Assembly (NCBI GenBank): GCA_900618425.1
Contig: UZAN01040209.1
Coordinates: 1 to 64,000, forward strand
DNA from: Echinostoma caproni
Taxonomy: Eukaryota > Platyhelminthes > Trematoda > Plagiorchiida > Echinostomatidae
Direction of reading: 5' to 3'
DNA: 64,000 nt
In this document: positions 1,845-56,625 of the stretch, piece by piece
Layout: each line of letters starts with the position of its first letter
Position numbering within the stretch: position 1 is the first letter of the stretch
The notes under the pieces: generated by a model
What the model was told of the DNA's origin: nothing
What the model saw: the letters and a program-made list of their open reading frames with translations, nothing else
The model's database searches: none
Program-made: the position numbers and the translations under genes

Positions 1845-2012
1845 CTGGCTAAGTGCACAGAACAAATGATGTGAAAACTGAAACGTTAGATGGAACTGGA
1901 CCGCTGTTTCAGTTTAGTCGGGCTTCATCAGTAGTACGAATCCATCAACCCAAATAAGACTCTAACGCGATAAAATGCAAGCATACTACCCAATTGACCA
2001 CTGATCAACAGA
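1845..2012 (-). mobile_element. Hammerhead-carrying short interspersed repeat, copy 1 (degenerate ribozyme)
   Basis: On the minus strand this copy shows a degraded tRNA-like head (about 2012-1950) and then a hammerhead region (1937-1892). CTGATGA and GAAA are both present, and a TC is found at the cleavage position, but stem II keeps only about two pairs and stem III is no longer self-complementary. It aligns with copies at 31.1 and 41.7 kb through the TAGTATGC and GGATTCG blocks. Probably inactive. Confidence 0.7.
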
Positions 2013-2175
2013 TCAAAGCCTCCACTACTCTCACGCAACCATTAGTTAGCTTTGGAATGCTCCTAACGAAGTTATAACTCCAGTGTTTAGTGATGAAGTG
2101 TGAGAGCTATGATGCCTGCCTTAAGCTCGCTAAGTTGGCTTGCGATATATCGTGCAAAGGCAAATTAAAATAAAT

Positions 2176-2336
2176 GGGTTGATCAGCTGTTCTGTGATTA
2201 AATGGTAAGGTGTGCTGTGAGCTGCCGGGTTCGACCCGGTTCAGTTGATGAATTCTCACTGCTAATGCGACCCACCTAGGTCTGAGCAGCTGTCCAGTGC
2301 TTTCTTTTCATGTTTCATTTACTGCGTACATAACGA
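2176..2336 (+). mobile_element. Hammerhead-carrying short interspersed repeat, copy 2 (broken ribozyme)
   Basis: Head at about 2176-2250 with a B-box-like GGGTTCGACCC (2227-2237). Hammerhead region 2255-2300: stem I CACTG/CAGTG and stem II GACC/GGTC are intact, as is the CAGCTG of stem III and the TC cleavage dinucleotide, but CTGATGA has become CTAATGC and GAAA has become TGAG, so cleavage should be abolished. The tail ends near 2336. It lies head to head with copy 1. Confidence 0.75.
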
Positions 2337-3524
2337 AAGTAACAGTCTACTCAAATCGAATTCTTCAATACTCTCATGCAAAATTGTGGTTTATAGTTGT
2401 GGATTGCTTTCCATGGGAATTCACTCATTCCTCATTTGCGACAGGCAGCGATTTACGGTGACCATCAAGGAGCGCTGGACAGACTTTTGGTGTTGAAAAT
2501 TGTAGCAAGCGTATACATTTTTCAATTAGGAACGATTGGTTTAACTACAGTATGATCGATTCACATGAACCCCTGGGGAGGCGAAAACCAAAACTGTGTA
2601 CTTCACACAAATATATCATTATCAATTCATTGTACTTTCTCTCCGTATCTCTTTCACTTTCATTCTCCACGTATATTCGAAAGAATTATTTGTAAGCGAT
2701 GAATTAAGGAAAAAAGCTATTCGCAGGTAGGAAGAGGCTCGGACATGCTGCTGGCATGTGTATTTTTGTATGTGCCCGTATGTGTGTCCGGTACATTGTA
2801 TCCAAGCTTGGGCGTGTGTGTGTGTGTGTGCTGGTATATGAGCGGACTTGTGCACGCGGTACGAGAGCAAGTGCTGGCTTGCACGGACGCACGTATGTGA
2901 TAAACACACCTCTGTCGAACTTGAAAGTCACTTTTATACCGGACGGTGGAACCAGGTCAGATTGTATGACCGGTTAGTTCGACTTGAGCGCATTTCGGTG
3001 TGGCTGCGGGGTCTGGAGGGGGGGGGGCACTTGGCGGGTCAGACTGGAGGAGTCGGGCAGTGAATGAGTGACTGGACAAATGAATGAGTGAACGAATGAA
3101 TGAATGAATAGAAATGATATTATAGAAAAATACGGACCGTTGGCCAAGTTTGTGTTTTCAGTTGAAAGACTGTTTGCGCGACCGAAACGCGGTTTGTGGA
3201 GACAGAAATTCCTTTGCCGTAGGTAGTTATAACTGTCATTAACATTTGATAAGGCCACAAAGTCGATCGAGCATGAAACGTGCCCTAGGACAAAGATCGA
3301 CGGAATACAAGGCGACCTCATATGAATGTACCCAAAGGGACATTGTAGCAAATTAAAGAAGTATAAGGTTTGAAGCGAGTACATATGATGAGATAATACA
3401 TATAAATTGATACAAACATAAGATAACAATTTAAATCTGTTTTTCACATTTTTGGATTAACCAGTTACATAGAGTTTTGTTTGAGGTAAACAGCCTGAAA
3501 AAGGAAGAGCTGGGTGATATAAAA
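2337..3524. other. Intergenic DNA 3' of the DYRK gene, with simple repeats
   Basis: Holds a (GT)n tract at 2814-2830, a G run at about 3018-3027 and a GAAT/GAGT tetranucleotide tract at 3061-3111. ORFs over 2622-3063 come from the GT-rich stretch. No gene seen. Confidence 0.55.
3061..3111. repeat. Tetranucleotide microsatellite (GAAT/GAGT)n
   Basis: Imperfect GAAT and GAGT units ending in five nearly perfect GAAT repeats. Confidence 0.85.
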
Positions 3525-3530
3525 TTTAAT
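3525..3530 (-). terminator. Candidate polyadenylation signal of the DYRK gene
   Basis: The minus strand reads ATTAAA here, the commonest variant of AATAAA, about 186 nt past the stop codon. No canonical AATAAA occurs on the minus strand between the stop and this site. This is inference from position only. Confidence 0.3.
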
Positions 3531-3715
3531 ACCGGACAAATTTGAGTCCAAGATAAGGCAGAAGTGGTTTGGGAGAGGTGTGGTTAAATGAGACATTGTA
3601 ATGGACTCAGAAGTTTCCCTATTTGCAGGTAATAAAAATATTTGAGAGTATATAAGTCAACAAATCCTATACATGGAACGCGGTGGTAACCATAATTGAA
3701 CAAAGCCATTCGTTA

Positions 3716-5922
3716 CTAATAGTCGGGAAAATGAGAGTAAGGTTGAATTTCGATTGTTGGGCCACGGTGATAAGAGCCACTCACACGTCGATAGACCACA
3801 TTATTCAGATGAGAAGGTTGATAATATGGTTGCGGAGCCCATACACTGGTGTAGGCATTGAGATTAGTCATACTATCTGATCGCCCAGTAGTATGAGACG
3901 GATTCANCACAAGGACGACATCATGCGTTGCCGGTTTGGATACGATGTCGGGAGCCAGGGGATCCAGTCGGGCGATGGATTTGTACGAACTGGACGACTT
4001 TTCGGAATCCCAGGAGCTGTTGTTTCCATCATGTGCTTCAACGTCATCAGTTATCTGAATCATATTTGCCTGGCGTGCATTACTGATTCGAATTAGACGG
4101 GGCTCATTTGAATTCAGTTGGTGATGATGATGCTGGTGATGTCCGTTAGTTGAAGGAGGACTGGACTTGTGTGCATTAATTGGACGAATTACATGCAAAA
4201 GTCGTGAGCAGTTTGTGGACGTCGAAGGTGTGCTTGTCACAGTTGAATAGAGCGGTTGTTCTGTCAGTTTCTTGATCAGTACTTGCTGTGCGTGATTTGA
4301 TTGGTTTGTACTGTATCCGGATGTGTTATACTCTTGTGTGTACGGTGGAGCTTGACGATAGGTTTGTCTACTGATCACAGGTTTCTCAATAGTTGTGGTA
4401 GAGTTTAAATAAGGTACAGAACCGCTCAGTTTTGCCGACTGATCTTGACTGCACCCGTCCTGATTCGTAGACTCGGCTTCCGTCTTGTTATAGTACTCGG
4501 AGAACGGGCGCATTCCAGTGGAACTGTGAAAGATCACCTGTGAGTTTCGGGCACTTTGAGTGGCAGGACCATTTGTCTCATTTTTGTTTGCGTAGCGACT
4601 GGATGCACCAAGTGACTCGTTGTGTCCAAATGAATAGTTCACACCAACCGTATTCAATGGCATGCTACCACGGGAGCGAAGAACCGGCTTGGTTTGCGTC
4701 GTTTTCATAGATAAATTCTCCATGGACTGATTAATTTGATGCCTGTCATCTGGTCGATTATCATAAACATTTGGTTCTGGGGGATAAATCAACGTTACTC
4801 GCTTGCTGGATGAATTAGATTGTGGGTCATCAGGAAAATGACTCGATGGTTCAGAGGTTTTTAGAGATTTATTTGGGGAAATTGATATGGTATTAATTGT
4901 TAAACCTCCTCCTGTACTACCGCCAAGAGCACCTGCACCACCTCCAGAAATACCCGTACTAACACCCTCAAAGCCTCCTGCGGAGAAGTGTCCAGGGGAA
5001 ATAATCTTGGTGAACCTAGGTGGCGAACGGGACATTTTCCCAGATGGGTCAGCTTCCGGATTCCCTTTGGTTTCACCTGTGGTTGTATTTGGTGCATTAG
5101 TACTTAGTGTCGTTCTGTCTATATCCAAATTAATTGTTGGCCGAAAAAGAAGACTTTCGGAAAACAAATTGCCCAGGCGTTTACGTCGACGGGGTACAAG
5201 AACTGGAAGTTCCTTGGGAGCGGTATTTCGGCTTTCCAAATTTCCATTGTGCACGTCGTTCGGTTTAATCGAGATAAATTGAGACACTTCCATGCTGCGA
5301 ATTCTAGCACTGGACATTGAATCCGATGGGTTTGCCACTGAGCTAGAATGTGCAACAGACGTAGTTTTCTTGGAGAAATTACGTAACCACATATTTTGAA
5401 TTGCTCTGCATGGTTTAACGCGCTCGGATGGGGACCAGGTGAGACATGACAACATAAATCCCAGGAGCAATTCGTTGTCTTTCATTAGGGCAGCTTCTTC
5501 CTCAGGTGATTTACAAAAGTTTGAAGTACTGGTCAAATTAGCCATACTCTGTGGATCTTTACGACGAAAACGCCGATGTCGTGGCTCTAATATAGCTTTA
5601 AGCAGCGGCATACTGCCGGGAACACCTCGGACATTTCCGGTTCGTTTTGAAACACCCGGCAACAGTTCGGGTGAGCCTCCACCTTCTGGATAGCGAATAA
5701 AACAATATCTGGGCAAATAGGTCACGTCCGACCGTACTCCGTTGTTCATTCTATCGACGAAGTTTAGGATATCGCTAGATTTTGATCTCTCAGATCGATA
5801 TTTCACGAAAAATCGATCAATATGTGGACTGTTCTGGATTAGATCTATCGGTGGGGGTCCCAAGATTTCCATAATACAGGCCAGTTGATCTGCTTCATCC
5901 TCGCCCGGAAACAGGGGAAGCC
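3716..5922 (-). CDS. DYRK kinase terminal exon: C-lobe and long low-complexity tail
   Basis: The acceptor TTTTTAG lies at 5929-5923 and two bases complete the Gly codon begun in the previous exon, giving the DYRK signature GLPLFPGEDEADQLACIMEILG. The C-lobe continues through LPRYC and the WSPSERVKP motif to MWLRN. A 25-residue insertion sits before LPRYC. The tail of about 550 residues has a Gly-rich stretch (coding at about 4900-4980), a His-rich stretch (about 4115-4140) and many Ser/Thr/Asn runs, without a recognisable domain, and ends at a TAG (3718-3716). Base 3906 is N, so one codon is undetermined. The whole tail is one open frame of over 1.6 kb, which argues that it is truly coding. 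Confidence 0.93.
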
Positions 5923-17900: not shown

Positions 17901-20900
17901 AGCATATGTCAGCACGGGTTTCGGGGAAAAGAGGTATCTGCCCGGCCTTCTACTATCATTTCAGTCAGTGGGGAAGCGAAATCTGAGGTTCACCCAGATA
18001 AAGTCATGTTCTTTGACTTCAGCGAAGCCTTTGGGAAGGTATCGCATGAATGGATATTGAAGAAGCTCTGTGCCATCAGGGTCCGAAACTCGCTCTTGAG
18101 CTGTATCATTGGATTCCTAAAGACTAAAGTCTCTCCTGTCAAAGTAAAACTGGAGTTATCACATTGGCATAAAATATATAGTGGGATCCTCCAGAGATCA
18201 GTAACAGAGCTACTATCGTCATCAGCTTTTGCCAAAGATTTTCAGCAAAACTCCAGTCTAATTGTTTGATGTGTACAGACAACTTAAGGGCTTCATGCAC
18301 ACAATTCCATTAGGGAATTTCATTAGAGTTAGCGCAAGCATCATGGTTCACAGTATCTCTTTAGCGGTGTACAAAAAATTCTCTGAAAGTACAGTCAGAA
18401 CAATGGCAAATCAATAAACGCCGTTGGCTATTGACAAGTATGGTTGTGCATCTTTTGAACACAACCGTTTAGTTTCAACATGATTACATCTGAAAGTGAA
18501 GGACGTGATCAGAAACGCGTTGAAAAACTAATTATTCGTAGAACATTCCCGCAGCACATACAGGATTTCATATATGCGTCCGCTCTCACCCTACTCCTTT
18601 ATTATTCCCCCCACTTTGAATGCATAGTTTACACAGTTCTTTGTTTCATACTCTCTATGGATGAGGTACCGCATCAGACACTGGCACCTTGGTTGGACAG
18701 ATTCATACATCTGACCAGACGCAGTATTTCAGTACATGGTTTAAAGGTCTCTTCTACAGTTGCGGATGAAATGGTGCGCCAAACTATTCCGAGAAGCAAG
18801 TGGGATGGGGTGATCTGCTCCTACTATTGCGTACAGAAGGTGTTCGGTTCTGATTCATTGGGAATTTAAATCAGCTGGCTGACAGTTTGGCGATGGGAAG
18901 CCCAATATTTGGTTTATTTACAGGAAAGTTAAATAAAAAACTACATCGCTCAATAGAAGAGACAGATTTCTGTAGGCGTTGTGTTGATGACAAATTTGCT
19001 GTAGTCATGTACAAAGCATGATTAAAACTTTGAGTTCTTGTAATCCGAACACAAGATTTACCGTAGAACGTGCGTCTCGTGGGCTTTATTATCGTGGGAA
19101 AGACCAGTATCTCATCAGGTCTACATTCAAAAAATCAACTTTGATGAAACAGTATTTTAGAAGTCTCTGTCTAATACATTATAAACGAGCCGAATTTCAT
19201 CGCAAAATATTGCGATATGATGAATAGTAGAGCTAGGAGATATGATGTACCAAATAAATGCGTTCTCGTGTAATTACCACTCAAAGGTGATGATAAAGAG
19301 AAACTGACATAACATCCTTTAAAGCAAGATCTGTCAAAGATTAACTACACCGTTTTGTTAACTATTCTCCATAAACGAAAACAAATCATCACTGAATCTA
19401 ACTTGGAAAAGCTGGACTACCAAGCTAATCCCATATATTTGTCTTTTTAAATATACTTGAGCTGGCAGGTATTTCGGAAGGACTGAGAGACGATTGCCTA
19501 TTAGGATTTCAAAAAGGGCCACAATAAATTTAGCGTCAAATTGTGTGGAGATTCCCTTTATTTCAACTGGCAGTCTTCTAATGGATTGTAAAAGTTGCAT
19601 CAACCGGAAGCGTGTGTTATGGGTGTTAGGCAGAAAGAAGATTGGATTATCCATGAGGTTACCTATGACTCTGACAATTCCGTGTTATGAACTAGACCTA
19701 TGTAAAGAACTAGACGTTGTTACATGAAAGTATTGGGGGACTCAATTTGATCAGATGGTGAATTTTATCTTGCACAAAGCAAATGAAAAGTGAACTGAAA
19801 ATTCTAAAAGCACCGGATAGCCTATTCAACCTGGCTGAGCCTCATCAGCAGTGCGAATCTATCTACTCAGCTTAGGATCGAATCTGTGACCCCACCGGTA
19901 GAGAGCAGGCGTGCTTCCTACTTGAGTTAAAGATAGGTAATACGACTATTCCTAATTTTTCCCATGCACAATATCGCACTATCTTTGCAAGCCTAATACT
20001 AGTAGCACTCCTCGTACAGTACTAGCATTGATTGAAACCACCCCAATCTACCTTCCTTCTAAACGAGAGTAGGGGAGAATCCGATCAGTTGCTCGGTAGT
20101 TAGGTATGTGCTTGCGTTCTACCTGTGAGGTCTCGAGCTCAATTCTCTACACGATTGTTTGTACGCAGCTAAAACGATAGTGCAAAGCAGTTGCATTCAA
20201 TCCTGTTTCTTGATGATCCTCGCTCTGGCTCTCATGATCTTTCCTTAAAGATTCTCCGGAGGACTCATAATCAAGTTGATCTAGATTTTAGGGTTTCTTC
20301 CTTGATCAGCATACAGAAGACCCCTGACAATCTTTTGAATCCACCTTAAATATTTTAATGGTAATTTGTCTATTATTCGGGAGATTCTCATGCGATTTGT
20401 ACCCTGTTTTGTTTCTCTTATGCTTATCCTTTACCATTCTTCTGAAATACTGATGCGTACACTTGCATGATAGAGGGAATGGACACGATGAAGAGAGTCC
20501 AACGTTCCCCTGACATATCCCATAACGAGGTGGCGTGAAACCAGGTATGAAGGATGCCTAAAGGCAAGTGGCGGGTTTCCGGAGCCCTATAGCAGAGTTT
20601 GATGAGCCTCATATGCATGAGGTAAATCTTTCGTGGTCCATATGGGACGGGAGCTCCAGGTCGCTTTTCATCTGCGGGATCACTCAAATTCTCAAAGTCA
20701 TTCATTGACCTTGGTAAAAGTTTCAACCGTACAGTATTCGTTTAGGTTTCTAAGTTCGAGACAGATCGTCAATTTATGAAATGGAGAATGTACAAAGTGT
20801 TGGAGGAGATGACAAGGTGTTCAAGAGAAAGTTCGAAGCTGTTTTGTTCAGAGAAAGCAAAGAACCCTGGAGTGAAGTCCAAAACAGTGGAGCGAAAATA

Positions 20901-38412: not shown

Positions 38413-40600
38413 TCTTCCTTATTTCTGTATTTCTCCAGTTAGCTATTTTATGGCCGGAGCCCTTTTCATGAATGTTGACTGTACATTTGTATATTCAGTA
38501 AATAAAAAGGAAGCAAAGAGACATTTTAAAACTCAAACCGTCTATGAAACAGGCATGGGATTCTTTCCAGGAATTGTTGCACAGTCACAGGACCAAGTAG
38601 ACAACGAGGTGTACTGCGTACCTGATTCATGACATCCTACTCAATATCCTCTCTCAAATGACTATGAGACCACTTATTTAATATATATATCATTCTTCAA
38701 TCATCTTCAATCAAGGCCCAAGACTATAACAGACGACCAAATAATACAAACTTCATAATACCAACAGTGCCACGGAAAAGTGTACAAATCTCATATAAGC
38801 ATCCCCATTTTGTTTTTCACTGTTGCTAGCGTGTACAGTTTGTTCTCAAACATTTAACACAAAGCACAAGTTTTGAATGAATTTTTACCCATACGGGGAT
38901 TGCAGACTCCAAATAAACGAAACATTCTCTGTCACGTGACGCGCCAAATTATTTTCCTGTTAATCGTGTCTAATAAGTTCATTGTTGAAAAGATCCCTGT
39001 GCGCTTCCGATAGTTAACTTTGTGAGTGAAAACTACGTGTTCAGAGTACGGTTCCGTGAATGGCGTTCTCTATCTGAACGACCGGCGGGAGAGAGGAGGA
39101 GATGCAATTTCTTTCGAGTGGTTGCCGTTTAATAACGATGTGTATTCCACGTCAACCAGTTTCCTCATGCTCGCAAAAATGTACACCATTTTTCTTAATC
39201 CGGCGAGATGTGTGCCGCGTTGAATAGTTCTTCTACCAAGTTGATAGAAACTGAATTTTCCAATCAAACTACATTTTGAAAACATCTGGATAACTTTGCC
39301 AGGCTTACAGATAGTCTGTATATGTATAAACTAATGTTCCTCTGTTTTCATCAATATCACCACGATCTCGCATTCATTCAAACCACTCCCTCACCACTCA
39401 GTGATTGTCGCCGGGATACTGCGAATGGATGTTAAGTTACGGGGATGAGAGCCAAACTCATCAATACCTTCGACATAAGCAGACTACGAACCAAACCGTT
39501 CCTTCCTACAAACGAGGTTTATTCTAGCACTTTTTTTAACCTATTTTTAAGTTTTCAGGTTGATGTAACAGCAGACATTGAAACGACCTGTTGCTTTCCA
39601 ATTGCAATTGGACTGGGAACTAGTATTGTTTGTTCGATTTGGCGGAATGAAAGTAAGTGCATTTTGACATGAGAATTATTTGTTAATCATTCGCATTTGA
39701 ACATTTTTAATCTCATCAGGAGCATTTTCTCGGATTGATTAAAGCTATTTTCAAAATTTGTTGACCATATCGTATTATCCTCATTTAATTCAGATTGCTT
39801 ACCAATAGCCAGGATTGAAGCCAAAGCATGCTCAGTAGATATCCACCGCACATAGTTGCAAGACTGTTAAACTCCGAAAAAGCTTTGCGGTGCCAGGCGT
39901 GACACATCAACTGTGCGCCATAAACCAATGTGGCACCATTAGGGTTAACTCTGTCTCGCACTGTATTTCATTCTTATCCACACCAACCGAACTCCCATTT
40001 TATTTTATCTCAAAATCTTGTATTTCTACACGCCGTTTTCCTCATTTTCCTCCCCATGTCTACTACAAACATTCACACCCGGGGGACACAATACCACCAA
40101 CGCACTCACACTAGTTACTGAAAAGTATATATTTTCAGAGGTATCACACGTGAAACGGGCTATGAAGTTCACCAATTAAACTTATTCGACTGTCTAATAA
40201 TTCACTCCTGCGGAATAAAATAATTCATTTACGGAGTTTATTTTCGTTTTCCATGAGCCGAATGAACCTCATAAAAGGTTTGACTGAAACTCTGGCAATT
40301 CAGTTACGTTCTTGTTTCTAAGTGCAGATTAGCTAGAGCTATGCGAAGAATGCTGTGGCCCATTATTCTAAAGTATATTTTTATTCTCTCAGTAGTTCAT
40401 TGTTCTTGATAGATTTGGAAAAATATGTTCATTCGAAGACAAAGTTGAAACGCCTCAAACTAGCATTAGGACATAATCTATCGGTGGTAGTTCTATATTT
40501 GGTAATCGTTCGACAACCCCTCCGGGAGCAAGACTATTGAAAGTCAAAAAAATGTCCGGAGGAAATGAAAGTTCACCGTAACACACCGCAACACCTTTGA

Positions 40601-40770
40601 AGTTACGATGGTCATGGTTTGATGGTGGTTAATATAATATCGCGGTTCGAGTCCGGACAGGGACAGAAAACGTACGCACGGCTGACGAGTCCCAAACAGG
40701 ACGAAACAGATGTCCAGTGCTCTTTGTCGGTTATCACAAATATTTCCAACGCATTTAAATGTAATCAAAT
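40601..40770 (+). mobile_element. Hammerhead-carrying short interspersed repeat, copy 5 (second subfamily, intact core)
   Basis: Head with A-box-like TGGTCATGGTTTGATGG and B box CGGTTCGAGTCC (40642-40653), then the CCGGACAGGGACAG block, the hammerhead (40676-40720) and a short tail. The stem II sequence GTCC/GGAC differs from the GACC/GGTC of the 31.1 and 41.7 kb copies and is closer to what is known of schistosome Sm-alpha hammerheads. This marks a second subfamily, shared with the 50.4 kb copy. Confidence 0.85.
40676..40720 (+). ncRNA. Hammerhead self-cleaving ribozyme, intact core
   Basis: Stem I GCACGG with CAGTGC (one G-A mismatch), core CTGACGA (position 7 is C, a tolerated position), stem II GTCC/GGAC perfectly paired around CAAACA, core GAAA, short stem III CAGATG, then TC with predicted cleavage after 40714. 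All required core bases are present. Confidence 0.87.
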
Positions 40771-41693
40771 AGTGGGGAATTAATGAGTTTTCAAGGAGTG
40801 AAACCCATCTCGAACATCAACAACAGTAACTCGTGCTTGTGAAAAACCGAGTGGGCCAATCCAAGCATTCACTATCTAAACTAAATATCACTTTATTCGG
40901 ATTAAAAAGTAAACTTAATTATGTACCGCCTGAAAAGTTTGCATTTGACTGAATTTTTGCTTGGTCTGTTCGATAAATCGAAATACGTGCTTGGTTGAAA
41001 ATGCATTAATATGTTGAACTGCAGACTGCTTCTTCTGCTGCTGCTACCAGGCCTAACCTAGTGACCTTACATAAACAGGGTCATCGCTTTCACAAGCTTC
41101 ACTCATCACAGGCTCCTGAATCGATCACATCCACTCAGTCGCACACGAACCGTACAATAAAAGCAGAGACGATAATAAATGTGGTATATCAGAGTTACTC
41201 ATAATCCCATTCTCAATAGGTTGCGAGTTGATTTGTTATGAATATGTACCCAGTACCAAGTCTGTTTGGGTCAATAGTATTACATCCTCGGGCCACAGGC
41301 GTACAGCCAGGTGGCCTGAGGTCATGTAAACAAACGTGCGATCAATAACAACACAGAGGAACAGGCAACTCAATGAAGGGAAACTGTAAACCCACCGATG
41401 CATTAAATTCTAATTTTAATGTTACTTTTGAAACTTTTGTGGAATATGTTCATACTTACCTAATTATGGGGGACAGCTTTTGTTTAACCATAAATCACCA
41501 GGGCAGTTTAGGATCGATCTAGAATGCTTGCTAACTCTAAACCGGTTTACTTTATCTCCTTCTAAAGGTAAATTCACCGATAAATCAATGTTAAGTCATA
41601 GAGGATGGGTGTTGTGGGAAAACCACTATGAATCACATCGGCTCTGGTACTGGTCATTCGTATGAAAGTAACGGAAAATTTCATTGGTTTATA

Positions 41694-41882
41694 AGATGAG
41701 TTCGTTGTGTAAATGAGACGTGAGCTGAAAAACTGGAAGGTGCTGGACAGCTGTTTCGACCTGGTGGGTCTCATCAGCAAGGCGAATCCATGGACCCAAA
41801 TGTGGATCGAACTAGGAATCTCACAGGTAGAACGCAGGCATACTATCCACTCGACCACCGGGCGACTGATCAGACAGTATCT
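41694..41882 (-). mobile_element. Hammerhead-carrying short interspersed repeat, copy 6 (best-preserved head)
   Basis: On the minus strand the head has a perfect A box TGGTCGAGTGG (41857-41847) and a perfect B box GTTCGATCC (41812-41804), 35 nt apart as in a tRNA. The hammerhead (41783-41740) and a tail ending near 41694 follow. The longer open frame at 41713-42048 on the other strand is a by-product. This is the clearest evidence that the family is tRNA-derived. Confidence 0.9.
41740..41783 (-). ncRNA. Hammerhead self-cleaving ribozyme, intact core
   Basis: Core CTGATGA, stem II GACC/GGTC around CACCA, core GAAA, stem III CAGCTG (self-complementary), TC with predicted cleavage between 41746 and 41745. 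Stem I is weak: GCCTTG against CAGCAC forms only about three pairs next to the core. The core is complete; activity may be reduced. Confidence 0.85.
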
Positions 41883-43520: not shown

Positions 43521-45794
43521 CTAATTCACGTTCGCGACCGGGAAGGCTTTTAAACTCATGACAATCAATATGAACAGACAATTAGTCGAAAGAGGAACAT
43601 GATATGGGCGGCGTCGGTGGCAGCGGAGGTGGTGATGGAGACAAAATATCACATTGATTCTTGAAACGTTTGACTCATCGAGACTATTTCAACCTATCGA
43701 CGATAATAAGAGCGGCACAGAATGCAGTGGCACCGGTGTACGGAGGTCATCCATGCACTCATTGCTAGAGCTACGTCAATGGTTCCGGGTCAAATAATTG
43801 TTACTTTCTGTGCGGTCGATAGAATTTAGTTGGTTGTACGTTTATTTACTGGGTTCGTGCAGACTGTCGTGGAAGACTGCTTCCGAAAATTATATGCTTT
43901 CAGTGGTAAAACCTTCGACTTTCGCCTGAAAATTCTTTTCCCACATAAATTTGAAGAAAGAACTCGAAATTGTGATTTTCACGTCTATGCCACTAAACGC
44001 TTCACAGCCTTCGCAGTCCGTACTCTATTTGTANNNNNNAAAAAGGTGAACTTTTAAATTACTAGAATAACAAAATAATTTATTATCCGAGGTTAAGATG
44101 GAGTTCATTTGTTGTTCTTCGTGTATATTGGAGAGTCCACTTACTAGATGAGAAGGTCCGAAGAATTTCTGTTTACTGTTTCACTAGATATAAATTTCTT
44201 GGAAGGTTACAACGTGTAAATGAATGAAAAAAGCAAAATGATACCCACACAGTGTGCTCCTGATGATACTGAGAGTTTTAGAATCAGATAGCTCGCAAAA
44301 ATACTATAGACGACACTACGAATCGTCAGACATAAGCTTATAACCTTAAAATTTTCTCAAATTAAGCCTTATTCATTCATGTGGAGCACAAAAGTGTAAA
44401 ATATGAAAAGCACTCTGCTGTACATAGTTGAAAACTCATTGAGAAGTTCACAACCATCTTAACGTTTAACTTTTAAATGCTAGATAAGGCAGTTCAACCA
44501 TGTACTAATTGATGTGAATCAATCAGATAGCGTGGTTGTCTATAGCTACTCCATGGCCTCATATCAAGCTCATTCTTTGGATAAACAGTTGTTCTTTAGG
44601 AAGCTACGGATTGGTAGCAAGTGAACGCGTGAAACATATAGAAAAACTCGAAATATTTGATTGAATTTTAACCTAAGCCCAATTCGAAGGAAGGTGAAGT
44701 AGGTAGTTTGAGCTGGAGGAAGGCGCTGATACGTCGGCACATCGGCTGCAGCAAAAGGCCAAACAACTGAGAGATAAAACAACAAGAAAATAGCAAGTCG
44801 AACTGAAAATTAGGTACAAGGAGAGAAGAGTTCAGTGACGCACTCTGGATTTGTCCAGTAAGGCCTTGGGTGAAATCAATCAAATGCAAGTACCTCGTAA
44901 ACTTTCGGAGAAATCGTTGGATAGATAACCAAGTTAGTACGTGTTTCGTGTATGCAAAAGATTCAGGTTTTATAAAATCGACCGATGTGAATGCAGTCGA
45001 CTCTTGAAGAATAGTCAAGAAGCAGCAAAGTGAACGATCCAAGAAAGGCATTCATTTAATAACAGAGGCTACACCTAACAAAGATCTAGTGGTCAAGTAA
45101 TATATTCGTAGCCTTATGTGTGCGTATGAGAACACCATTTTCGATCAATCTGAGAGCAGCATGTATCAAGGTTATTTAAAAGAAGCCTTTGGAGGAGGAG
45201 GAAACAGAGAAATTGACTACTTTGGAATTGACATGATTTTGGTGAGCTTTAAATAGATTGGAGTGGTGAAAGGGATGGAGAATTCTTTTCCAATGGAGGT
45301 GATTCTTTTCGTATAGTGAGCTGACTCCAAGCTAAACTAGAGCAGAAGGTAAATAGGGGAACGGTTCCAAATCACATTTGTTGTATTTGATGCGTAGAAG
45401 GAAAGATAGACTGGCCATCTGCAACAGGCTTGATTACAATAAGAAATGTCTCATTTAGTCAACAACAGATGGCCAGGTGAGGGTTGGGTGCTGTAAGAGA
45501 CTCTCGTATGATCAAAATGGTTCTGGTCATTATTGCACTAGCAATATCTCATTTCAAGTATCAAAGAAAAAACAACAATAACCATTCAAAAAGAGTGTGT
45601 TTCATGAGCAGAGTCAATCCTCCACTCCTCAAATGTTAGGAGTAGTCAGGTTTGGATGGTGTTCAACCTAGTCACAACCCTGGCGGCCAGTACTGATTTG
45701 ATCGAAGTGTGTGATATCTACAACACGCTTGCAAAGTCATATATTTTACTACATCGTGTATGGGCAAAAGGCAGCCTAAAAAACTTCCTGGTTA

Positions 45795-45960
45795 ACTAGA
45801 GGATTGTATGTCTTCGTTCTACCTGTGAGTTGGTGGGTTTACTATTCACACTGATACGACCCATTCAGATCAAAACAGCTGTTCAGTGCTTTCTAGCTTT
45901 TAAGTTCACATTTTACTTACTCTGTACACGATGAAGTTTACTTCATTAATATTTTTATCA
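45795..45960 (+). mobile_element. Hammerhead-carrying short interspersed repeat, copy 7 (broken ribozyme)
   Basis: Head block CGTTCTACCTGTGAG (45814-45828) is shared with the 20.1 and 41.7 kb copies. In the hammerhead region (45845-45888) CTGATGA has become CTGATAC, GAAA has become AAAA and the cleavage TC is TT, while CAGCTG and CAGTGC remain. Inactive. Confidence 0.72.
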
Positions 45961-48480: not shown

Positions 48481-48484
48481 GAGT

Positions 48485-50395
48485 CGCCAGGTAGTAGTTT
48501 TATTGAGTCAATACAGCTCAGTGCAAATCGATTTTAAGTGTGACATCAAAAGATTTCATTAAGGTGAATAGGCGAACTAAACTGCACAAGAATACGGTGA
48601 GAGTATGAAGGCGGAACATGTTTTCGCACTTGGAGGAAGCGGAATGGATAGAAAGGTAATGAGTCAAAATTTATCATGTTTAGCAACCGGGAAACATACT
48701 TGAATTGACAATCCTCTTGTCGCATTAAGATATAAAAGGTGGGCATAAAAATATTAACGAGATGATAAATACTGAAATTAATTATTTAATATATGGAGTA
48801 AAAGTTGGTAAGGTTCAGTAACCATTTCGTGGTACACGATGTATCGAACGACTTTCTTTGAGTGACCTCGATAGGCTTAATTATCAATCAATGCCAAGCT
48901 ATCAAATACTGCGACTGTGCATAGCTGTTCTAAAATTTTTGAACATCTGGAAAAACGTCTCACCTAAAAGCCTTGAACCCAATGAATTGGACTTTTTCAA
49001 AACAATCTGATCTTTCTAAATCTGTCTTTGGGTGGTGAAATTCCGCGGGTCATTGGAAACCAAAAATCAGTGTTTCCGGGTTGGTTGTAAAGGCGAATAA
49101 GAGTTACTATTACAACTGTTAAACTATTCCTATAACTATGGCTCGGGTTTTAGCTTACCACAGAGCGCGTGTACGGGCGAGAGAGTATTGCATGACCCCA
49201 TTCTCGTGTTGTGACATTAATGTCTGGAACAGAATATTTTGTCTGTGATCGCGTTCAAAACTATTGTGATAAACAAGTCGAAGCTTGTTCACTCATCACA
49301 GATTTACAAAACCATTGACCTTTTCGAACGATTGTGAATGCAGTTTTACTTAGTAAGACCGATGTACCACGAGCGCATCACCTAGGATCTGTCTGTCTGA
49401 GGGGAAACTACAACCGAAAATTGGACAAACAAACAAACAATGAAATCCCGTGTTAGGAAGTTATTCAGCTCTGAAGCGACCAGTTTAGTCTCTTCAATGA
49501 GGCTCCCGGTCGCAGCAGAACATACAAACTTCATCTAGTTCATGCGGATACTACTTAAGCTCCATCGATCGGTACTGTCTAAAGCTGTGTGAGCGAACTT
49601 TTTAATTTCATTATTCTTGATCAAAATAAAATCCAATTCAGAGTATAGACGTTTCTACTGAATACTTGCGTCTCACAGATAACCTATGCAATCGCCCCTC
49701 ACTCGTCAGAGCGACCATGATACTCGTCAGGTACCTAGCTTGTCACCTAGGTGGGCAAGCCTGATTAGCGGTTGATTACATATAATATCAAATAAAATTA
49801 ACTCAAGTTTACGCTTACGCCAAACAATTAATCTTCATAACTGATTTGTTTTATTCGGGTAAAAGTAGATGTGATGACAGTTTCGGGGCTATACACCCTA
49901 ATCCTTTTTGTACCATTTAATGATTATCAGAGTACACTACTAGTGTTTTTACCATGAGCTCTATCGAAGAAATACCACAAATCTACGGTCGAAATAAAAG
50001 CTTTTGGCAAGAACCAAAAATTATTGAATTGCCTTCCAGCATACGTTGTCACATTAACGACATGCTACACTGATCCCTATCAACGTCCATTTTCATTTGC
50101 TGTTGATTTTGTAGTAAATCTGACTGTATATTTCTTTATTTTTTAGATTTCCCGAGAACACAACACAGATAATCCACATGTATGAAAATACTTTTTTCTT
50201 CGATTCCACTTTAAGGATACAGTTTGAGATCGAGCAACGAAAAGCGGTTTGCGTAGCAAAGCTTCATAATCTTAAGGAAATCGGAAAACTGGAGGAAAAC
50301 ACCGTTGAACAGACAGAAGCACAATGCTTTTACATGACAGACACGTGGGCATCAACTGGTTTGAGAAATATTTCCAAACCAACTGCCTACTTCGA
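48485..50395. other. Non-coding region, nothing recognised
   Basis: AT-rich; short frames only. An open frame at 50178-50540 (plus) runs into the antisense of a hammerhead repeat and has no known motif. Confidence 0.5.
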
Positions 50396-50530
50396 TGAAA
50401 AGGTGTTAATGAATGTTTTCAATCCGTTTAAAAGCATTGGACAACCATTTCGTCAGGTTGAGACTCATCAGCAATACGAACTAAGTTCTGCCTCTGCCGG
50501 GACTACGAATGCGAAATTTTGGGTTATGAG
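50396..50530 (-). mobile_element. Hammerhead-carrying short interspersed repeat, copy 8 (second subfamily, intact core)
   Basis: On the minus strand a degraded B-box region (CATTCGTAGTCCC, about 50510-50500) is followed by CGGCAGAGGCAGAAC, equivalent to CGGACAGGGACAG in the 40.6 kb copy, and then the hammerhead (50477-50434). The A-box part is not clear. Confidence 0.78.
50434..50477 (-). ncRNA. Hammerhead self-cleaving ribozyme, intact core and fully paired stem I
   Basis: Stem I GTATTG/CAATGC pairs at all six positions (one wobble), core CTGATGA is intact, stem II GTC/GAC closes a TCAACCT loop, core GAAA is intact, and TC is at the cleavage site, predicted between 50440 and 50439. Stem III TGGTTG can form only wobble pairs. 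The compensated stem I suggests it is either young or under constraint. Confidence 0.82.
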
Positions 50531-53500
50531 CAAAAACTGATCTACGCTGAGCCGCACGATTTGTGGAGAATAAACGAGCTACCAGTGAGTGCTACTCGCA
50601 CACGAGAAAACAGAGCACAGATCATGGTACCCATGGCTGAGAATTGAATTAATGAAAACCGTTTAACTTACACACTTTCCACTGAAATAGAGTCTACACA
50701 TTCAGCAACGATAGGTCATTTTGAAGGTTTGAGCGGTCTTCACAACTTGCCCAAAATAATTACAGAGCCTTTATTTGCGCATAAAATGTAACATGAAACC
50801 TATCTCTTCACGTCAATCAGACCATAGGTAAAGGCCATGATAAACACGTATCCAACAACCATTTCAATCTCACGCAAAAGAAACACAAATCTCTCAGGTC
50901 CTCTATGACTTGGAGTCCGAATTTCATTAATTATCTAGTGGTTCTGTTCAATATCTGACCCGATCAAGGTCACTTCAAGCATGTTTACAGACATTTAAAT
51001 CTAATTACAATTACAATTTATCGATTATCATAGCCGTTTTAAGGGCTATGGATCCATCCATCAGCTGTTTTGTAAGCTGCTTAGAACTCAAGATGCGTCA
51101 TTCCCGTCCATATATAGTCAGTTTTGTTGAGTCGATCGAAGGACTGCGAACACTGATCGGTCGTTCCTTATGCACTTTCAACATAGTGCTAAAACTGAAC
51201 ACCGGATCACGGAAGAAGCAGGGATAATGTATTGCATTCAGGTGGAATAAATGGAAAGAAATCAGCTCTGGAACAAATTTGTTCAAGTGAGCAAGATTTT
51301 AAACTTGTTCAGTCTGCCGTACATTGCTAACACTACACAGGTACGTCCAGAGGTGTACACCTCATTTTTTGAGTTTGGTTGGTAAAGTCAGTAAAAAAAA
51401 GTAAAAATATTTCCTTCAAGACAAGCGTGCCTCAGGGCAAAGGACCATTACCCTTTGTTGCATATGGGTTCGCTTATCTTAAGGTAAATGTATACTCAAA
51501 CACAAAAGCCCGCTGAATGGACTGTGTATAATAAAATAAACAAATGCAACCTAACTGTTGCATAACGGCTGTCAAAAAACACCTAATAGGAATCGTCAAC
51601 AGTGTGCACTTCTTCCTATTCAATCGTGACTCGCACCACGAACACCCTGCGATGAGGATCGAAAAATATCGAAATCGTTGTGCCATCCTGCAAACGTTCA
51701 TCAGTAATCCACCTCAAACAATGGTAGCAACTATCTTGGGCTTCTCCTCTTCACTTGGCCATCTATGTGATTATTTTGACCTGTGAGTTCAATAAATCTA
51801 GCGCTATTTAGCTGAACTGGAATGGCACATTGAGGGAGGTCGTCCAAAATTCGCAACTAAGTCATGATTTCCTAATAGCACTAAAGTTGTCTAGATGTAA
51901 CGTATATCTCTATAGAGCTTAATCATCATTACATCTGGTCCGCAAACGTACTTCCAGAATAACCCGAATTTCGAAAGGTTCTGACTATCAAATAATGAAA
52001 CAAAAGTAGCCTGTCCGATTGATCATATTCACTAAATTATAGTAGTGGCTTGGAAGTGGTCTGAACTTTTCCAGATTGACAGAGATCTGGCTCTTGAACA
52101 GAAGCACTACATGGTGATCCTGTAGAGACTGGGTTTTCTATTCACTCGACAATGTTACTTATCCATAGTTTGGGCTTTTGTTAGCGTCATATCCGTAAGA
52201 AATTTAGGGCTCGCCTACTTAGGAACGCTTATCTTTGGTTCATTTCAAATCAAAAAATGTTTTAAAACAAAAGATTGGTTTTATGTATAGCGTATCTTGG
52301 ATGTTCGTATTTTGGGACTGTGGGTTTTCTTGTTTAGAAAAATTAAAAAATGTTTCCTAATATTTTCGTCCCCTGTCTTTAAATATTAATTGACGTATAA
52401 AATCATGAGTTTCCGGTCGATTGTGAAAACATCGAAATCAAGTCTGTGTTTTATTTGCACCTACTGTGATTGCCGATGTGTTCGATTTTGTGACAAAACA
52501 CGTCACCTCCAGAGAGAAATAGAGAGAGTATGCAAATAAAACAGCCATTTTTAAATAAATTGATTTTTTGCCATAATGTGAGCTCAAATAATCAGGCGGG
52601 TTACACAACCCAGTCCTAAACGTTGTAGTCTACGAATTACCTCGTGAGTGAAAAAGCAAATATGAGAGTTTTTCTTCCAGAGCAGCAGCTACCTTATCCA
52701 ATCAGCTCAAACGATTAGGTGCTCTTAAAATATATAGAGTGCGGATGGCGTACACACTGCTACTTCAAGTAAAACGTTATTAAACCTAGCATGATGGCGA
52801 CCAAAGTTGTCGCATACTGTCAGCACAATCCATCGCACCACAATGTCGAAATCGACGGGGTGACGTCAGTCAACCCCGTGCGTCTTCCTTTTAGTCAACA
52901 TGCTCTCGAGTTCAGGTGCACTCGATAGCCAATCATTGCCTTGTATGTGTCACGTGATAGAAAATATGAAGATAAATGAATATTGGTATTGTCAAACCTA
53001 GCAAACTATTCCATTTTAAAAGCCACTAGTTAATCTCAGCCACACACGTTCGCTTGTCTTCTTCCAATCACTATCTAGTCCGAATCATAGGATTCATACG
53101 ATTGCAAATGTTCCACTTCTGTCTGAAACGAACGGAGATGTACGAATGAAATAATTACCGAAGCGAACGGAAACTCTTATTTCATATGGTCGTGAGTGCG
53201 GAATTTCAAGCGAAGCTCAAAAGTCAATGCGATTTGTTTGTTAGAGGAGAGTGAAAGCCACACGTGACCATACAAGGGTGTGATTAGACTCAAGTATGAA
53301 TGCAGTGCGATGTTATAACCCACAGTTTTACACCACAATCCACTCAGAACCCTTCTATTGTTCACAGTGCGTCATTTGTCGTCTTGTCGCTCTTGTGTGA
53401 TAGACAAACATGTTCCCATTACCGGAGGGACCCAGTCAGTACTGCATTTATTCTCTAATAATTTTACCCAATTGAACCACGATTTATAGACTACTTTCCA

Positions 53501-54350: not shown

Positions 54351-54359
54351 TATATAGAT

Positions 54360-54690
54360 GACTTCTGCAGGCAACTGTGCCTACATTTTACTGAAAAATC
54401 TTTTCACCATTACAGTGGGATAAATCGAAATAAAACCTGCAGCAGATTACGTAATCATGTGGAAAAATGACAAAACAACCCGTTCTGTTTCACACTGTAT
54501 ACTATTTCACTTGCAGTTGCTGTCACGCATATATGGGCAGAACAAACCGTCAATTATCACAAAGAATGATCAAACACATTCCGAAGTGTTTGGTGAAATT
54601 GTTGACGCAACCCACGCTTGATAGTCAGGCGGTCACAAGGAATTCGGGGTTATCATTTGCAAACNAACTTCATGACAATCAAACATAATT
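54360..54690 (+). mobile_element. Penelope-like element C-terminal GIY-YIG endonuclease fragment
   Basis: The open frame 54467-54688 reads VYYFTCSCCHAYMGRTNRQLSQRMIKHIPK, matching the PLE endonuclease: VYxFTCSC with the GIY-equivalent, YMGRT as YIGRT, the conserved Arg, then R(L)S.R..EHIPKWL. The upstream residues FHHYSGINRNKTCSRLRNHV lie in a different frame, so there is a frameshift. An N at 54665 spoils one codon. No RT is attached; the RT fragment at 18.5-19.65 kb is too far away to be the same copy. Confidence 0.8.
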
Positions 54691-55309
54691 GAGCCCTCTT
54701 CCTCCTTCTAACCCTAATTACCGTACGGCAAAATTCTTAACAATTAATAAGGTAAGGATCTGATTACATCATCCCACTGATGTAACCGGTCCACTTGCCA
54801 TGGAGTCAACCTCTTGTGTTTGATTTTAATAACCCCTGTCTGTACACGTCCACCCACTGGGATTCGCCAACCCAATGTGCCTATTTGTTTTACGTCAGTA
54901 ATTGAGGGGATAAAAAAATGTTAAAAACTCGGGATACCGCTGTCTTAATTACGTCTTGGTACAACGAAAATCAACTAGTTAGTCATTGAATAATGCCTCG
55001 GAACCACAGGCAATTGTTAGTAGATGTACTGACTAAGTATGACAGGATAAGGCAAATATTTCATGCGATGCTCAGTTTGATATTTGATCAATGCGGTTTA
55101 ACAAAAGATGAAAAGTAGCATCCTATACGATGTCACTACTCACGTGATATATTTCCGTTTCGGTCCGGATCTGATCACGCCATCCGGGAACTATTGATTC
55201 ATGAAATGGCAAACGCGGCGAACATGTACATCTCATCTAATCTTACACCAAAACCAAGTGTATATCGTTATCTTTCATGTGACCTTGTCAGATCAGAGTT
55301 GCTCATCGT

Positions 55310-55510
55310 ATAGTTTGACGTTATTCGTGAATTTTCCCCGAAGTGGATGAGCAGAACACCACCGGAGGAGCTCATGCGATGAGCCAGAACATTTACAAAA
55401 ATAACCGATCGTTTAAAATCTCATCACGATAGAATCATGGATCATCAAATTATCATAGAGACCTTAACCGTTGCACTCAGATAATATTGGGCGCCAATTC
55501 AAATCAGTTT
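55310..55510 (+). mobile_element. Possible Ty3/Gypsy pol relic
   Basis: IFPEVDEQNTTGG, then MSQNIYKNNRSFKISSR, then an LGANSNQ-like end resemble the region of Gypsy pol between protease and RT (EFPEV, HxIxTxGxPxxxRPRRL, LGIIxPSxSxW). No catalytic box follows, so this is tentative. Confidence 0.33.
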
Positions 55511-56461
55511 TATTGTTTAAAATCGGTGCTTCGTATCATAGTGTTATATGTACCATTTCTCTTTTGTGAGACATATATACTGACGGGTTTTCTCTAGGGA
55601 ATCAATCATATAAAGTATGCTTCTGAGCACAAATAGTCAACATGCTATTGTCGAGAATTTTGGAAATAATTTTCTTAACACTGGAGCTTTTATATTTCAG
55701 TAGATGACCAAGCTTCTATAATTTGTCAACTATAAACATAAGTGAATACGACATATAGTATAGACCTATAGGTTTTGGAATTTACTAACGCACGTGTATT
55801 CTTCTTTTGTGTCTGCCCGCGCTAAACAGTTTTTGATCCTTGGTAAAAACTGCGTTCTGTTCATTCAAATAGGACCAAGGAAAAAACAAGATCACGTACT
55901 ATATATACTCTATGGTCTAGTCAATATTTCTGTGTTTACTTAATGTCTATTTTTTTAATAATCCTGGTAACTCATATTTCCCATGTCTTTGAATACAGTT
56001 TGGTGGAACGCTAGTGCTTCAGACAGAACTTTTTCTGAAAGACGTTGGACGGTTTCAAACAGAGACCTTCCGGGACCGGAAAGTCCCAGATCATTTTAAA
56101 TTTGAAGTAACTTGTAGTCTGCCCAATATCCCATCATAAATGCCCTAGGAATAACCAAACATATCATGCACTATTATGAATGCAGAACCTACTGATTGTG
56201 TCAAATGGCGTCAGCAAAAGTACAGTAACGTACACTGATCATTCTATAATAATGTGTACAAGGAGAACTTTTTCACCTACATAGCACAAGAAATGCTATG
56301 TGATAAATTGATAAGCTCTGTTTCGCTATTTCAGTAACCAAGTTCGGAATGTTGCCAAATGAATCTTAACCGTAAAAGCTTAATCTGAGGAGAGTGAGCC
56401 CGCTACAAGCTTGCCAAAAAGGGTTATGTTATAATACGTAGGGAAACAGCATACCAGTTTG

Positions 56462-56625
56462 ATATGCTGCCCGACAGCCAGTTGATTAGTATCCGTGCGC
56501 TCTGTCTGTAAGAACCCGGGGCCGATCCTCAGTTCAGTGAAAGGACTCGCAAGGCTGATGAGACTTCACCAGGTTAAAACAGTCGCATGGTTCTTCCGAG
56601 GTTCTTATTTCACGTAATCTTGCCT
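56462..56625 (+). mobile_element. Hammerhead-carrying short interspersed repeat, copy 9 (broken ribozyme)
   Basis: Head about 56465-56530 with a degraded B box. Hammerhead region 56553-56590: CTGATGA is intact and stem II GACT/GGTT can form, but GAAA is AAAA and the CAGCTG-TC block is CAGTCGCATGG, so there is no proper cleavage site. Confidence 0.7.

What the first reader, a model, noticed from the sequence alone, without database searches (positions are those of the whole stretch)
1845..56625. A family of nine tRNA-headed short repeats that carry hammerhead ribozymes
Seen directly: nine copies on both strands share a tRNA-like head (A and B boxes), a hammerhead region and a short 3' tail. 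Four have every core base. Known: Sm-alpha SINE-like repeats of schistosomes and Penelope-like elements carry hammerheads. Inferred: this is a Pol III-driven, self-processing, non-autonomous retroelement that could release unit-length RNAs or circles. In 64 kb this means about one copy per 7 kb, a large genomic load.
Basis: partly seen in the sequence, partly recalled or inferred. Interest (0 to 1): 0.88.

Follow-up and report, generated by a model that had tools for sequence, protein, structure and literature searches.

The report
Fluke ribozyme repeats in mirror-image pairs
A stretch of parasitic-fluke DNA carries old copies of a small mobile repeat with a tRNA-like start and a self-cutting RNA motif, a kind known from blood flukes, but here the repeat appears to have spread as two mirror-image halves around a shared middle piece, which would put a self-cutting RNA on each DNA strand.

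Summary
Eleven related copies lie in nine places. Seven share tRNA-like head, type I hammerhead and tail, and 7 of 7 are refound when left out of the profile (E 7.7e-17 or better). Two (40.7, 50.5 kb) share mainly the B-box region and hammerhead; two more are decayed. Four hammerheads look intact.

The host gene is DYRK2-like, best matches Fasciola and Fasciolopsis (62%): a digenean fluke. tRNA-headed hammerhead SINE-like elements are known in schistosomes.

At 1.8-2.35 and 19.7-20.1 kb two heads diverge from a 140-167 bp spacer. The same spacer adjoins arms at two further places clearly, a third (31 kb) with support resting partly on one copy, and a fourth marginally. The arms testable on either side look alike at the time of spread. 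Junk ORFs from unnamed ENA sources read through the same mirror arrangement.

Transcription, cleavage and mobilisation are inferred. No tandem copies were found, so release of unit-length RNAs or circles is unsupported; no target-site duplications were found. The genome could not be searched.

The parts
1837..2013 (-). Unit 1, arm A: head, hammerhead, tail
   Evidence: Profile hit; E 4e-19 when left out
1893..1937 (-). Hammerhead of arm 1-; core letters present, stem II broken
2014..2180 (.). Unit 1 spacer between the two divergent heads
   Evidence: Spacer profile, E 4.5e-8 when left out
2181..2350 (+). Unit 1, arm B: head, hammerhead, tail
   Evidence: E 6.9e-19 when left out
2256..2300 (+). 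Hammerhead of arm 2+; core altered
19746..19941 (-). Unit 2, arm B: head, hammerhead, tail
   Evidence: E 7.2e-25 when left out
19810..19854 (-). Hammerhead of arm 19-; altered (A15.1 lost)
19942..20081 (.). Unit 2 spacer
   Evidence: E 5e-4 when left out, over its B-side half; A-side half resembles that of unit 1 (1 of 500 random stretches as good) but not that of unit 5 (136 of 500)
20082..20147 (+). Unit 2, arm A: only the head is detected by the profile
   Evidence: Found without being in the seed, E 4e-6
28142..28338 (+). Strongly decayed arm, no partner or spacer found
   Evidence: Independent hit 28222-28333, E 2.1e-5; wider limits from a profile that includes it
31110..31298 (-). Unit 3, arm A with intact hammerhead core; lies between two DYRK2-like exons, same strand as the gene
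31166..31210 (-). Type I hammerhead, intact core, palindromic stem III ACAGCTGT
   Evidence: Rfam 45.6 bits
31299..31402 (.). Unit 3 spacer remnant, orientation opposite to that beside B arms; about 60 bp next to the head missing
   Evidence: Independent hit 31316-31375, E 4.7e-6, but 0.075 when copy 41- is left out; BLAST to the 41- spacer, 65 bp, 77%; wider limits from a profile that includes it
40597..40789 (+). Second subfamily copy: perfect B box plus hammerhead
40676..40720 (+). Type I hammerhead, intact core; best Rfam hit
   Evidence: 52.1 bits
41684..41871 (-). Unit 4, arm B with intact hammerhead core
   Evidence: E 2.5e-37 when left out
41740..41783 (-). Type I hammerhead, intact core, weak stem I
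   Evidence: 40.8 bits
41872..42021 (.). Unit 4 spacer
   Evidence: E 2e-11 when left out
45616..45779 (.). Unit 5 spacer
   Evidence: E 1.3e-15 when left out
45780..45949 (+). Unit 5, arm B
   Evidence: E 7.7e-17 when left out
45845..45889 (+). Hammerhead of arm 45+; core altered
50372..50559 (-). Second subfamily copy
50434..50477 (-). Hammerhead with intact core letters, 6 bp stem I
   Evidence: Rfam 25.9 bits, below the cut-off
56325..56440 (.). Unit 6 spacer remnant (marginal)
   Evidence: E 0.011 with the four-spacer profile; 0.003 to 20 across profiles
56461..56655 (+). Unit 6, arm B
   Evidence: E 6e-20 when left out
56549..56593 (+). Hammerhead of arm 56+; core altered (G12 lost)

Best explanation
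This is an old, now mostly decayed family of short non-autonomous retroposons in a digenean fluke, of the same kind as the schistosome Sm-alpha/Sj-alpha elements. Each arm (about 190 bp) is a tRNA-like Pol III promoter head, a type I hammerhead with a tiny palindromic stem III, and a short tail. The mobile unit was a head-to-head pair of such arms around an asymmetric spacer of about 155 bp, so each strand carries one ribozyme. Shown by sequence: arms, hammerhead cores, spacer homology and orientation, shared B-side junction, likeness of the testable A and B arms. Inferred: each head drives Pol III transcription outward through its hammerhead; because stem III is only about two pairs plus a palindromic loop, cleavage runs best when two RNAs pair through stem III; cleavage separates head from tail; the unit moves in trans by a LINE- or Penelope-type reverse transcriptase, with frequent loss of one arm.
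For: Arm family: 7 of 7 refound when left out. Hammerhead: three Rfam hits above the gathering score. The two subfamilies differ outside the ribozyme and B-box stretch, yet 31- and 40+ agree at 39 of 45 hammerhead bases, and two of the six differences form an A-U to U-A swap in stem II. Hammerhead core columns are kept at 0.87 against 0.76 elsewhere (208 of 20,000 random column sets as high). Head: consensus A box 11/11, cloverleaf at threshold 90 against 1 of 400 shuffles. Unit: two divergent head pairs, probability of two or more within 200 bp 0.002 for 11 random copies (limit set after seeing the data). Spacers refound when left out: 41- 2e-11, 45+ 1.3e-15, 2+ 4.5e-8, 19- 5e-4. B-arm heads begin at the same spacer end in 2+, 19-, 41-, 45+. 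The A-side half matches between units 1 and 5 and units 1 and 2 (1 of 500 random stretches as good each). Two A arms and five B arms do not form separate groups; 21 pairwise identities fit one star-like burst. Four unnamed proteins read an antisense and then a sense hammerhead; in two the inner distance, brought to the same edges, is about 322 and 325 nt (my arithmetic) against 318 in unit 1. Host: DYRK2-like gene of a fluke.
Against: Only 2 of 9 places keep both heads, and one keeps two recognisable hammerheads; three (28+, 40+, 50-) show no spacer. The 31 kb spacer falls to E 0.075 when 41- is left out, and the 56 kb one is marginal. The A sides of units 5 and 2 do not match each other beyond chance (136 of 500). 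The likeness of arms rests on two A arms and on a consensus made from the same seven arms. No target-site duplications. Stem I is not favoured in any of four whole-arm folds (probability at most 0.15) and stem II only in 31- (0.98-0.99; 0.31-0.32 in 40+, 0.07 or less in 41- and 50-). Covariation is modest: double changes 3 against 2.6 in shuffles. A seven-base linker (0.857) is kept better than the whole hammerhead (0.816), and the A box (0.701) worse than average. T4 runs lie 1-16 nt after the hammerhead in 7 of 9 copies and could stop Pol III before the tail. The query held sense and antisense frames, which favours proteins with both.
Confidence: 0.55

Rival explanations
1. An ordinary single-arm tRNA/hammerhead SINE. 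The inverted pairs are independent insertions, perhaps because the spacer is another repeat that attracts insertion at its ends.
For: Three of nine places have no detectable spacer and four show one arm only with it; known Sm-alpha/Sj-alpha elements are described as SINE-like. SINE hotspots exist (recalled).
Against: The B-side junction is the same in the four best spacer copies, and no spacer hit above control level lies away from an arm; probability of two pairs 0.002; two of four unnamed proteins show nearly the same inner distance.
Confidence: 0.22
2. A non-autonomous DNA transposon (long-TIR foldback element or MITE) whose terminal inverted repeats contain a captured tRNA/hammerhead sequence, moved by a transposase.
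For: Arms are inverted around an asymmetric centre and look alike at the time of spread.
Against: No target-site duplication, no sharp common outer end in the alignment, and one arm missing in most places.
Confidence: 0.12
3. The hammerhead is passive: it came with an ancestral sequence, does not cleave in a monomeric arm, and plays no part in spread.
For: Five of nine hammerheads are broken (counting 1-); stem III is minimal; whole-arm folds do not favour stem I.
Against: The hammerhead is the best-kept part between the two subfamilies; three hammerhead candidates of Schistosoma W-elements cleave in vitro (PMC8490949, section read), and their stem III is extremely short (passage).
Confidence: 0.25

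Closest known systems
Sm-alpha / Sj-alpha SINE-like elements of Schistosoma (passages read in PMC2770079, PMC8490949, PMC2576457, PMC5993326; Ferbeyre 1998 not held, Laha 2000 not looked up, both known here through citing papers)
   Same: Fluke host; Pol III boxes A and B with a type I hammerhead; high copy number; also seen in introns; in S. haematobium, small-RNA clusters with hammerheads overlap SINE/tRNA repeats.
   Different: No Sm-alpha DNA was in hand for alignment. Sm-alpha transcripts are recalled to be multimeric precursors cut to unit length; here copies are dispersed arms, some in head-to-head units with a spacer. S. mansoni elements were traced to tRNA-Gln-TTG; here no parent tRNA is clear.
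Schistosoma W-elements with hammerheads (W25.2, W26.2, W27.2, W36.2; PMC8490949, one section and passages read)
   Same: [quoted passage not shown] three candidates shown to cleave in vitro.
   Different: Satellite-like; the word head-to-head does not occur in the main text. [quoted passage not shown]
Metazoan non-LTR retrozymes (PMC7229834, sections 14 and 17 and passages read)
   Same: Type I hammerhead in a short non-coding element thought to be moved by LINE or Penelope machinery; weak monomers may act as dimers.
   Different: Described as tandem units giving circular RNAs; no tandem units here.
Penelope-like elements with hammerheads (recalled; the 2014 paper is not held)
   Same: Minimal type I hammerheads; terminal repeats can be inverted (recalled).
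   Different: They encode a reverse transcriptase and are not known to me for tRNA heads (recalled).

Membership tests
Type I hammerhead ribozyme (Rfam RF00163) | CUGANGA, GAA and A15.1-U16.1 core with three stems, open at stem I | tested here: met
   Met by 4 of 9 copies (31-, 40+, 41-, 50-); three above the Rfam cut-off, 50- below it
Type I hammerhead ribozyme (Rfam RF00163) | Self-cleavage | not testable with these tools
   Needs an in vitro assay
Sm-alpha/Sj-alpha SINE-like elements | Pol III boxes A and B with a hammerhead, in a fluke | tested here: met
   Consensus A box 11/11 and B box 33 bases on; B box of 9 or more in 3 of 11 single copies; host gene of a fluke
Sm-alpha/Sj-alpha SINE-like elements | Sequence homology outside the hammerhead | not testable with these tools
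   No Sm-alpha or Sj-alpha DNA was in hand; the genome search tool did not complete
tRNA-derived SINE | Head that folds as a tRNA | tested here: met
   Consensus only: ARAGORN at threshold 90, 1 of 400 shuffles; not at 100, not in single copies at default settings, no RF00005 match
tRNA-derived SINE | Target-site duplications | tested here: not met
   0 of 7 arms and 0 of 6 units beyond chance; best case unit 5, 37 of 300 random pairs as good; decay of old copies could hide them
Metazoan non-LTR retrozyme | Tandem units with hammerheads | tested here: not met
   0 of 10 arms has a second arm within 700 bp downstream; upstream partners found are inverted
Metazoan non-LTR retrozyme | Circular RNA | not testable with these tools
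   No RNA data
Long-TIR DNA transposon / MITE | Inverted terminal arms with a duplicated target site | tested here: not met
   Inverted arms in 2 of 9 places; no duplication beyond chance
Penelope-like element | Encoded reverse transcriptase with the repeat | not tested
   No ORF was tied to a unit; one RT-like ORF seen by eye (17856-18269 +) had no Pfam hit at 1e-3

The most novel reading that the evidence does not exclude
A new architecture of ribozyme retroelement, apparently present in more than one place of the public record: a mirror-image unit with an outward Pol III promoter and a hammerhead of opposite polarity in each arm. A full-length transcript would fold as one long hairpin in which each ribozyme is paired to its own complement and cannot cut, so the template is protected, while single-arm Pol III transcripts cut themselves. 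The unit would thus carry its own switch between genome RNA and processed RNA.
Probability: 0.25. Interest if true: 0.75.

Novelty: new variant of a known kind. Interest (0 to 1): 0.5.

Why it matters
Hammerhead-bearing short repeats occur in many animals, but why they keep a ribozyme is still open: in a lone copy, cutting should destroy the template. A unit with one ribozyme on each strand in inverted arms suggests a way out (the template hides its ribozymes by pairing with itself) that can be tested directly. It also points to tRNA-headed hammerhead elements outside schistosomes, in a fluke nearest Fasciolidae among what was found, and places an intact copy on the sense strand between two kinase exons. 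None of the papers listed by ten literature searches (open-licence PMC only; some lists capped, such as 30 of 937 and 5 of 1,913) is titled or abstracted as describing a head-to-head hammerhead element, as far as the titles and abstract starts shown go; I opened nine of them (passages or sections) and saw none there.

Tried and rejected
External DNA relatives: a hammerhead pattern in viral contigs gave three contigs, in which Rfam finds no hammerhead above its cut-off; set aside as unrelated. A stricter pattern gave 0 matches in viral contigs and 0 in genome contigs. A protein search with an ORF antisense to arm 41- found no candidate.

Target-site duplications: sought for 7 arms and 6 units, none beyond chance.

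Partner arms for 28+, 31-, 40+, 41-, 45+, 50-, 56+: none above control scores within 700 bp; inverted repeats found near 28+, 40+, 50-, 56+ are short or absent and look like chance.

Covariation as proof of a working ribozyme: too few sequences, and it mostly tracks the consensus.

A boxes of single copies: weak evidence, since 10% of random stretches score 10 or more.

Faults of mine: an invalid option in the nhmmer part, which printed an old table; redone (its tblastn part did run). One search was a badly built query, and one search also matched 'sinensis'. One search had wrong coordinates for copy 19-; redone.

One search was run for this check.
Full report
WHAT WAS CLAIMED.

IS IT THERE. 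Yes. Rfam's type I hammerhead model hits three places above its cut-off and a fourth below it. BLAST with three of these copies brought in the rest, and an alignment shows shared head, hammerhead and tail. Profiles built from six of the seven full arms refind the seventh in 7 of 7 cases, E 7.9e-45 to 7.7e-17; the best in one reversed and ten Markov-shuffled windows was 0.25. Four copies outside the seven-arm seed are found as well: 40+ (4.4e-6 or better) and 50- (0.02 or better), both over the hammerhead only, 20+ (head, 7.5e-5 or better) and 28+ (decayed arm, 0.0056 or better). In all there are 11 arms in 9 places.

HEAD. The seven-arm majority consensus has a perfect A box and a B box 33 bases on, and ARAGORN still calls a cloverleaf at threshold 90, as in 1 of 400 dinucleotide shuffles; at 80 it is 28 of 400, and at 100 neither has a call. 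The window has no tRNA at default settings, RF00005 is not among the matches for 31- or 40+, and single-copy boxes are weak: A box of 10 or more in 5 of 11 (10% of random stretches), B box of 9 or more in 3 of 11 (1.5%). So 'tRNA-like head' rests on the family. I could not name the parent tRNA.

HAMMERHEAD. 31- and 40+ belong to different subfamilies that share little outside the ribozyme and B-box stretch, yet agree at 39 of 45 hammerhead bases, and two of the six differences swap a stem II pair from A-U to U-A. Among the seven arms core columns are kept at 0.87 against 0.76 elsewhere (208 of 20,000 random sets as high); the whole hammerhead (0.816) ranks 9 of 194 circular shifts, a seven-base linker is kept better (0.857), and the A box worse (0.701). 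Covariation counts are weak with nine sequences: 80.0% of cells paired against 77.3% in shuffles (18 of 500 as high), double changes at chance, 20.6-37.4% when slid, where a consensus-derived structure is favoured. Stem III is ACAGCTGT, self-complementary, as is ACGCGCGU in Rfam's consensus. In one molecule it can give about two pairs; between two molecules, eight. Whole-arm folds favour stem II only in 31- (0.98-0.99; 0.31-0.32 in 40+, 0.07 or less in 41- and 50-) and stem I in none (0.15 at most); forcing the hammerhead pairs costs 3-9 kcal/mol. Dimer action is my inference; PMC7229834 reports that weak axolotl monomers work better as dimers (passage), and PMC8490949 shows in vitro cleavage by three W-element candidates (section) and calls their stem III extremely short (passage).

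1- and 2+ point away from each other with 167 bp between their heads, and 19- and 20+ do the same with 140 bp. For 11 copies placed at random, one or more such pairs within 200 bp has probability 0.08 and two or more 0.002; the 200 bp limit was chosen after seeing the data. The stretch between the heads is itself shared: profiles of three spacers refind the fourth at E 2e-11 (41-), 1.3e-15 (45+), 4.5e-8 (2+) and 5e-4 (19-). The four-spacer profile finds a fifth beside 31- (4.7e-6), on the side and in the orientation expected of an A arm, with about 60 bp next to the head missing; this falls to 0.075 when 41-, its closest relative, is left out (65 bp at 77%). A sixth beside 56+ is marginal (0.003 to 20 by profile). 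Other window hits are at control level. B arms (2+, 19-, 41-, 45+, 56+) start at one end of the spacer; the junction is the same in the first four. A arms (1-, 20+, 31-) lie at the other end. The A-side half matches between units 1 and 5 and between units 1 and 2 (1 of 500 random stretches as good each) but not between units 5 and 2 (136 of 500). No partner arm was found within 700 bp at 28+, 31-, 40+, 41-, 45+, 50-, 56+, and no spacer at 28+, 40+, 50-. So 2 of 9 places keep both heads, four keep one arm with spacer (56+ marginally), three show an arm only.

ARMS LOOK ALIKE AT THE TIME OF SPREAD. Seven arms are 0.69 to 0.87 identical to their consensus. Their 21 pairwise identities depart from those expected for independent decay of one sequence by -0.007 (A-A, one pair), -0.003 (B-B) and +0.010 (A-B) on average. 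The test has two A arms, and the consensus comes from the same arms. It fits one old burst from a progenitor with two similar arms.

OUTSIDE SUPPORT. A protein search with three translated frames of the consensus gave four proteins at E 10 or better among seven candidates (6.9e-8 to 9.8e-3), all with an 'ena' source and no name. They look like junk ORFs. 4 of 4 hold an antisense hammerhead (KHWTAVST is the complement of GGTCGAAACAGCTGTCCAGTGCTT) and later a sense one (LMRPN-VETAV); B-box-like peptides on the inner sides were seen by eye. P0030 aligns with arm 31- from the B box through the hammerhead (tblastn E 3.5e-6). The measured inner distances are 327, 330, 216 and 147 nt; brought to the hammerhead edges the first two are about 322 and 325 (my arithmetic), against 318 in unit 1. 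The query held both frames, so it favoured proteins with both; it did not favour a given spacing. P0032 alignments run weakly into the tails of several window arms (E 0.075 and above); no protein matched a window spacer at E 5 or better. Whether the sources are one or several genomes, or even relatives of the window's own species, is unknown.

HOST. The 762-residue ORF at 3716-6004 - matches Fasciola gigantica and Fasciolopsis kinases at 62%, Paragonimus at 38-39%, Clonorchis at 35%. Kinase-like exons follow at 25376-26047 (Pfam Pkinase, 100.8 bits) and 35475-35816 (25.5 bits, below Pfam's cut-off) on the same strand. The window is thus from a digenean nearest Fasciolidae among what was found. 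The intact copy 31- lies between two of these exons, in the gene's sense.

HOW IT LIKELY WORKS. Shown: anatomy as above. From known pathways: A and B boxes recruit Pol III; a type I hammerhead cuts after GUC. Inferred: each head transcribes outward through its hammerhead; cutting leaves head plus most of the ribozyme upstream and the tail downstream. In a lone arm this would destroy the template, and a T4 run 1-16 nt after the hammerhead in 7 of 9 copies could stop Pol III before the tail; 1- and 31- also have a T4 inside the head. A full-length transcript of the mirror unit would pair its arms and hide the ribozyme, which could explain why the double unit spread. This step has no direct evidence. 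Which reverse transcriptase moved it is unknown. No target-site duplications were found in 7 arms or 6 units.

COMPARISON AND NOVELTY. Hammerhead SINE-like elements with boxes A and B are known in Schistosoma: PMC2770079 counts more than 38,000 hammerhead hits in S. mansoni and traces the element to tRNA-Gln-TTG (passages); PMC2576457 describes intronic hammerheads with boxes A and B (passages); PMC5993326 finds small-RNA clusters with hammerheads overlapping SINE/tRNA repeats and suggests that self-cleavage limits spread (passages); PMC8490949 covers W-elements and mentions intra-element inverted repeats around miRNA and snoRNA parts (section and passages). Retrozymes are described as tandem units (PMC7229834), not met here. 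I file this as the same kind as Sm-alpha, with membership untested for lack of Sm-alpha DNA, and as a new variant by its mirror-pair unit. Ten literature searches showed no such unit in the titles and abstract starts listed or the nine papers opened; the founding Sm-alpha paper was not held and the Sj-alpha paper was not looked up.

Noticed in passing
3716-6004, 25376-26047, 35475-35816 (all -): Exons of a DYRK2-like kinase gene of a fluke with very long introns; best named matches Fasciola gigantica and Fasciolopsis (62% for the first ORF).
   Followed up: partly
17856-18269 (+): ORF that by eye resembles a decayed LINE reverse transcriptase (FSEAFGKVSHEWILKKL, recalled motif); no Pfam hit at 1e-3.
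   Followed up: partly
59607-59743: An imperfect palindrome of about 137 bp, 75% identical to its own reverse complement; no link to the repeat family in the all-against-all BLAST at 1e-6.
   Followed up: no
L001:9152-9177, L002:5823-5848, L003:747-772: Hammerhead-like motifs, by eye shortly before a start codon, in three viral contigs; none reaches Rfam's hammerhead cut-off. L002 also holds a Twister-P5 ribozyme (41.9 bits) about 700 bp away.
   Followed up: partly
31340-31514 (-): Sub-threshold SCARNA7 match (20.3 bits, cut-off 65) on a TG-rich stretch beside unit 3; probably low complexity.
   Followed up: no
11533-11765: TCAT, TCAG and related microsatellite arrays.
   Followed up: no
1 to 16 bases after the hammerhead in 7 of 9 copies: A T4 run, a possible Pol III stop before the conserved tail; 40+ and 56+ lack it.
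   Followed up: partly
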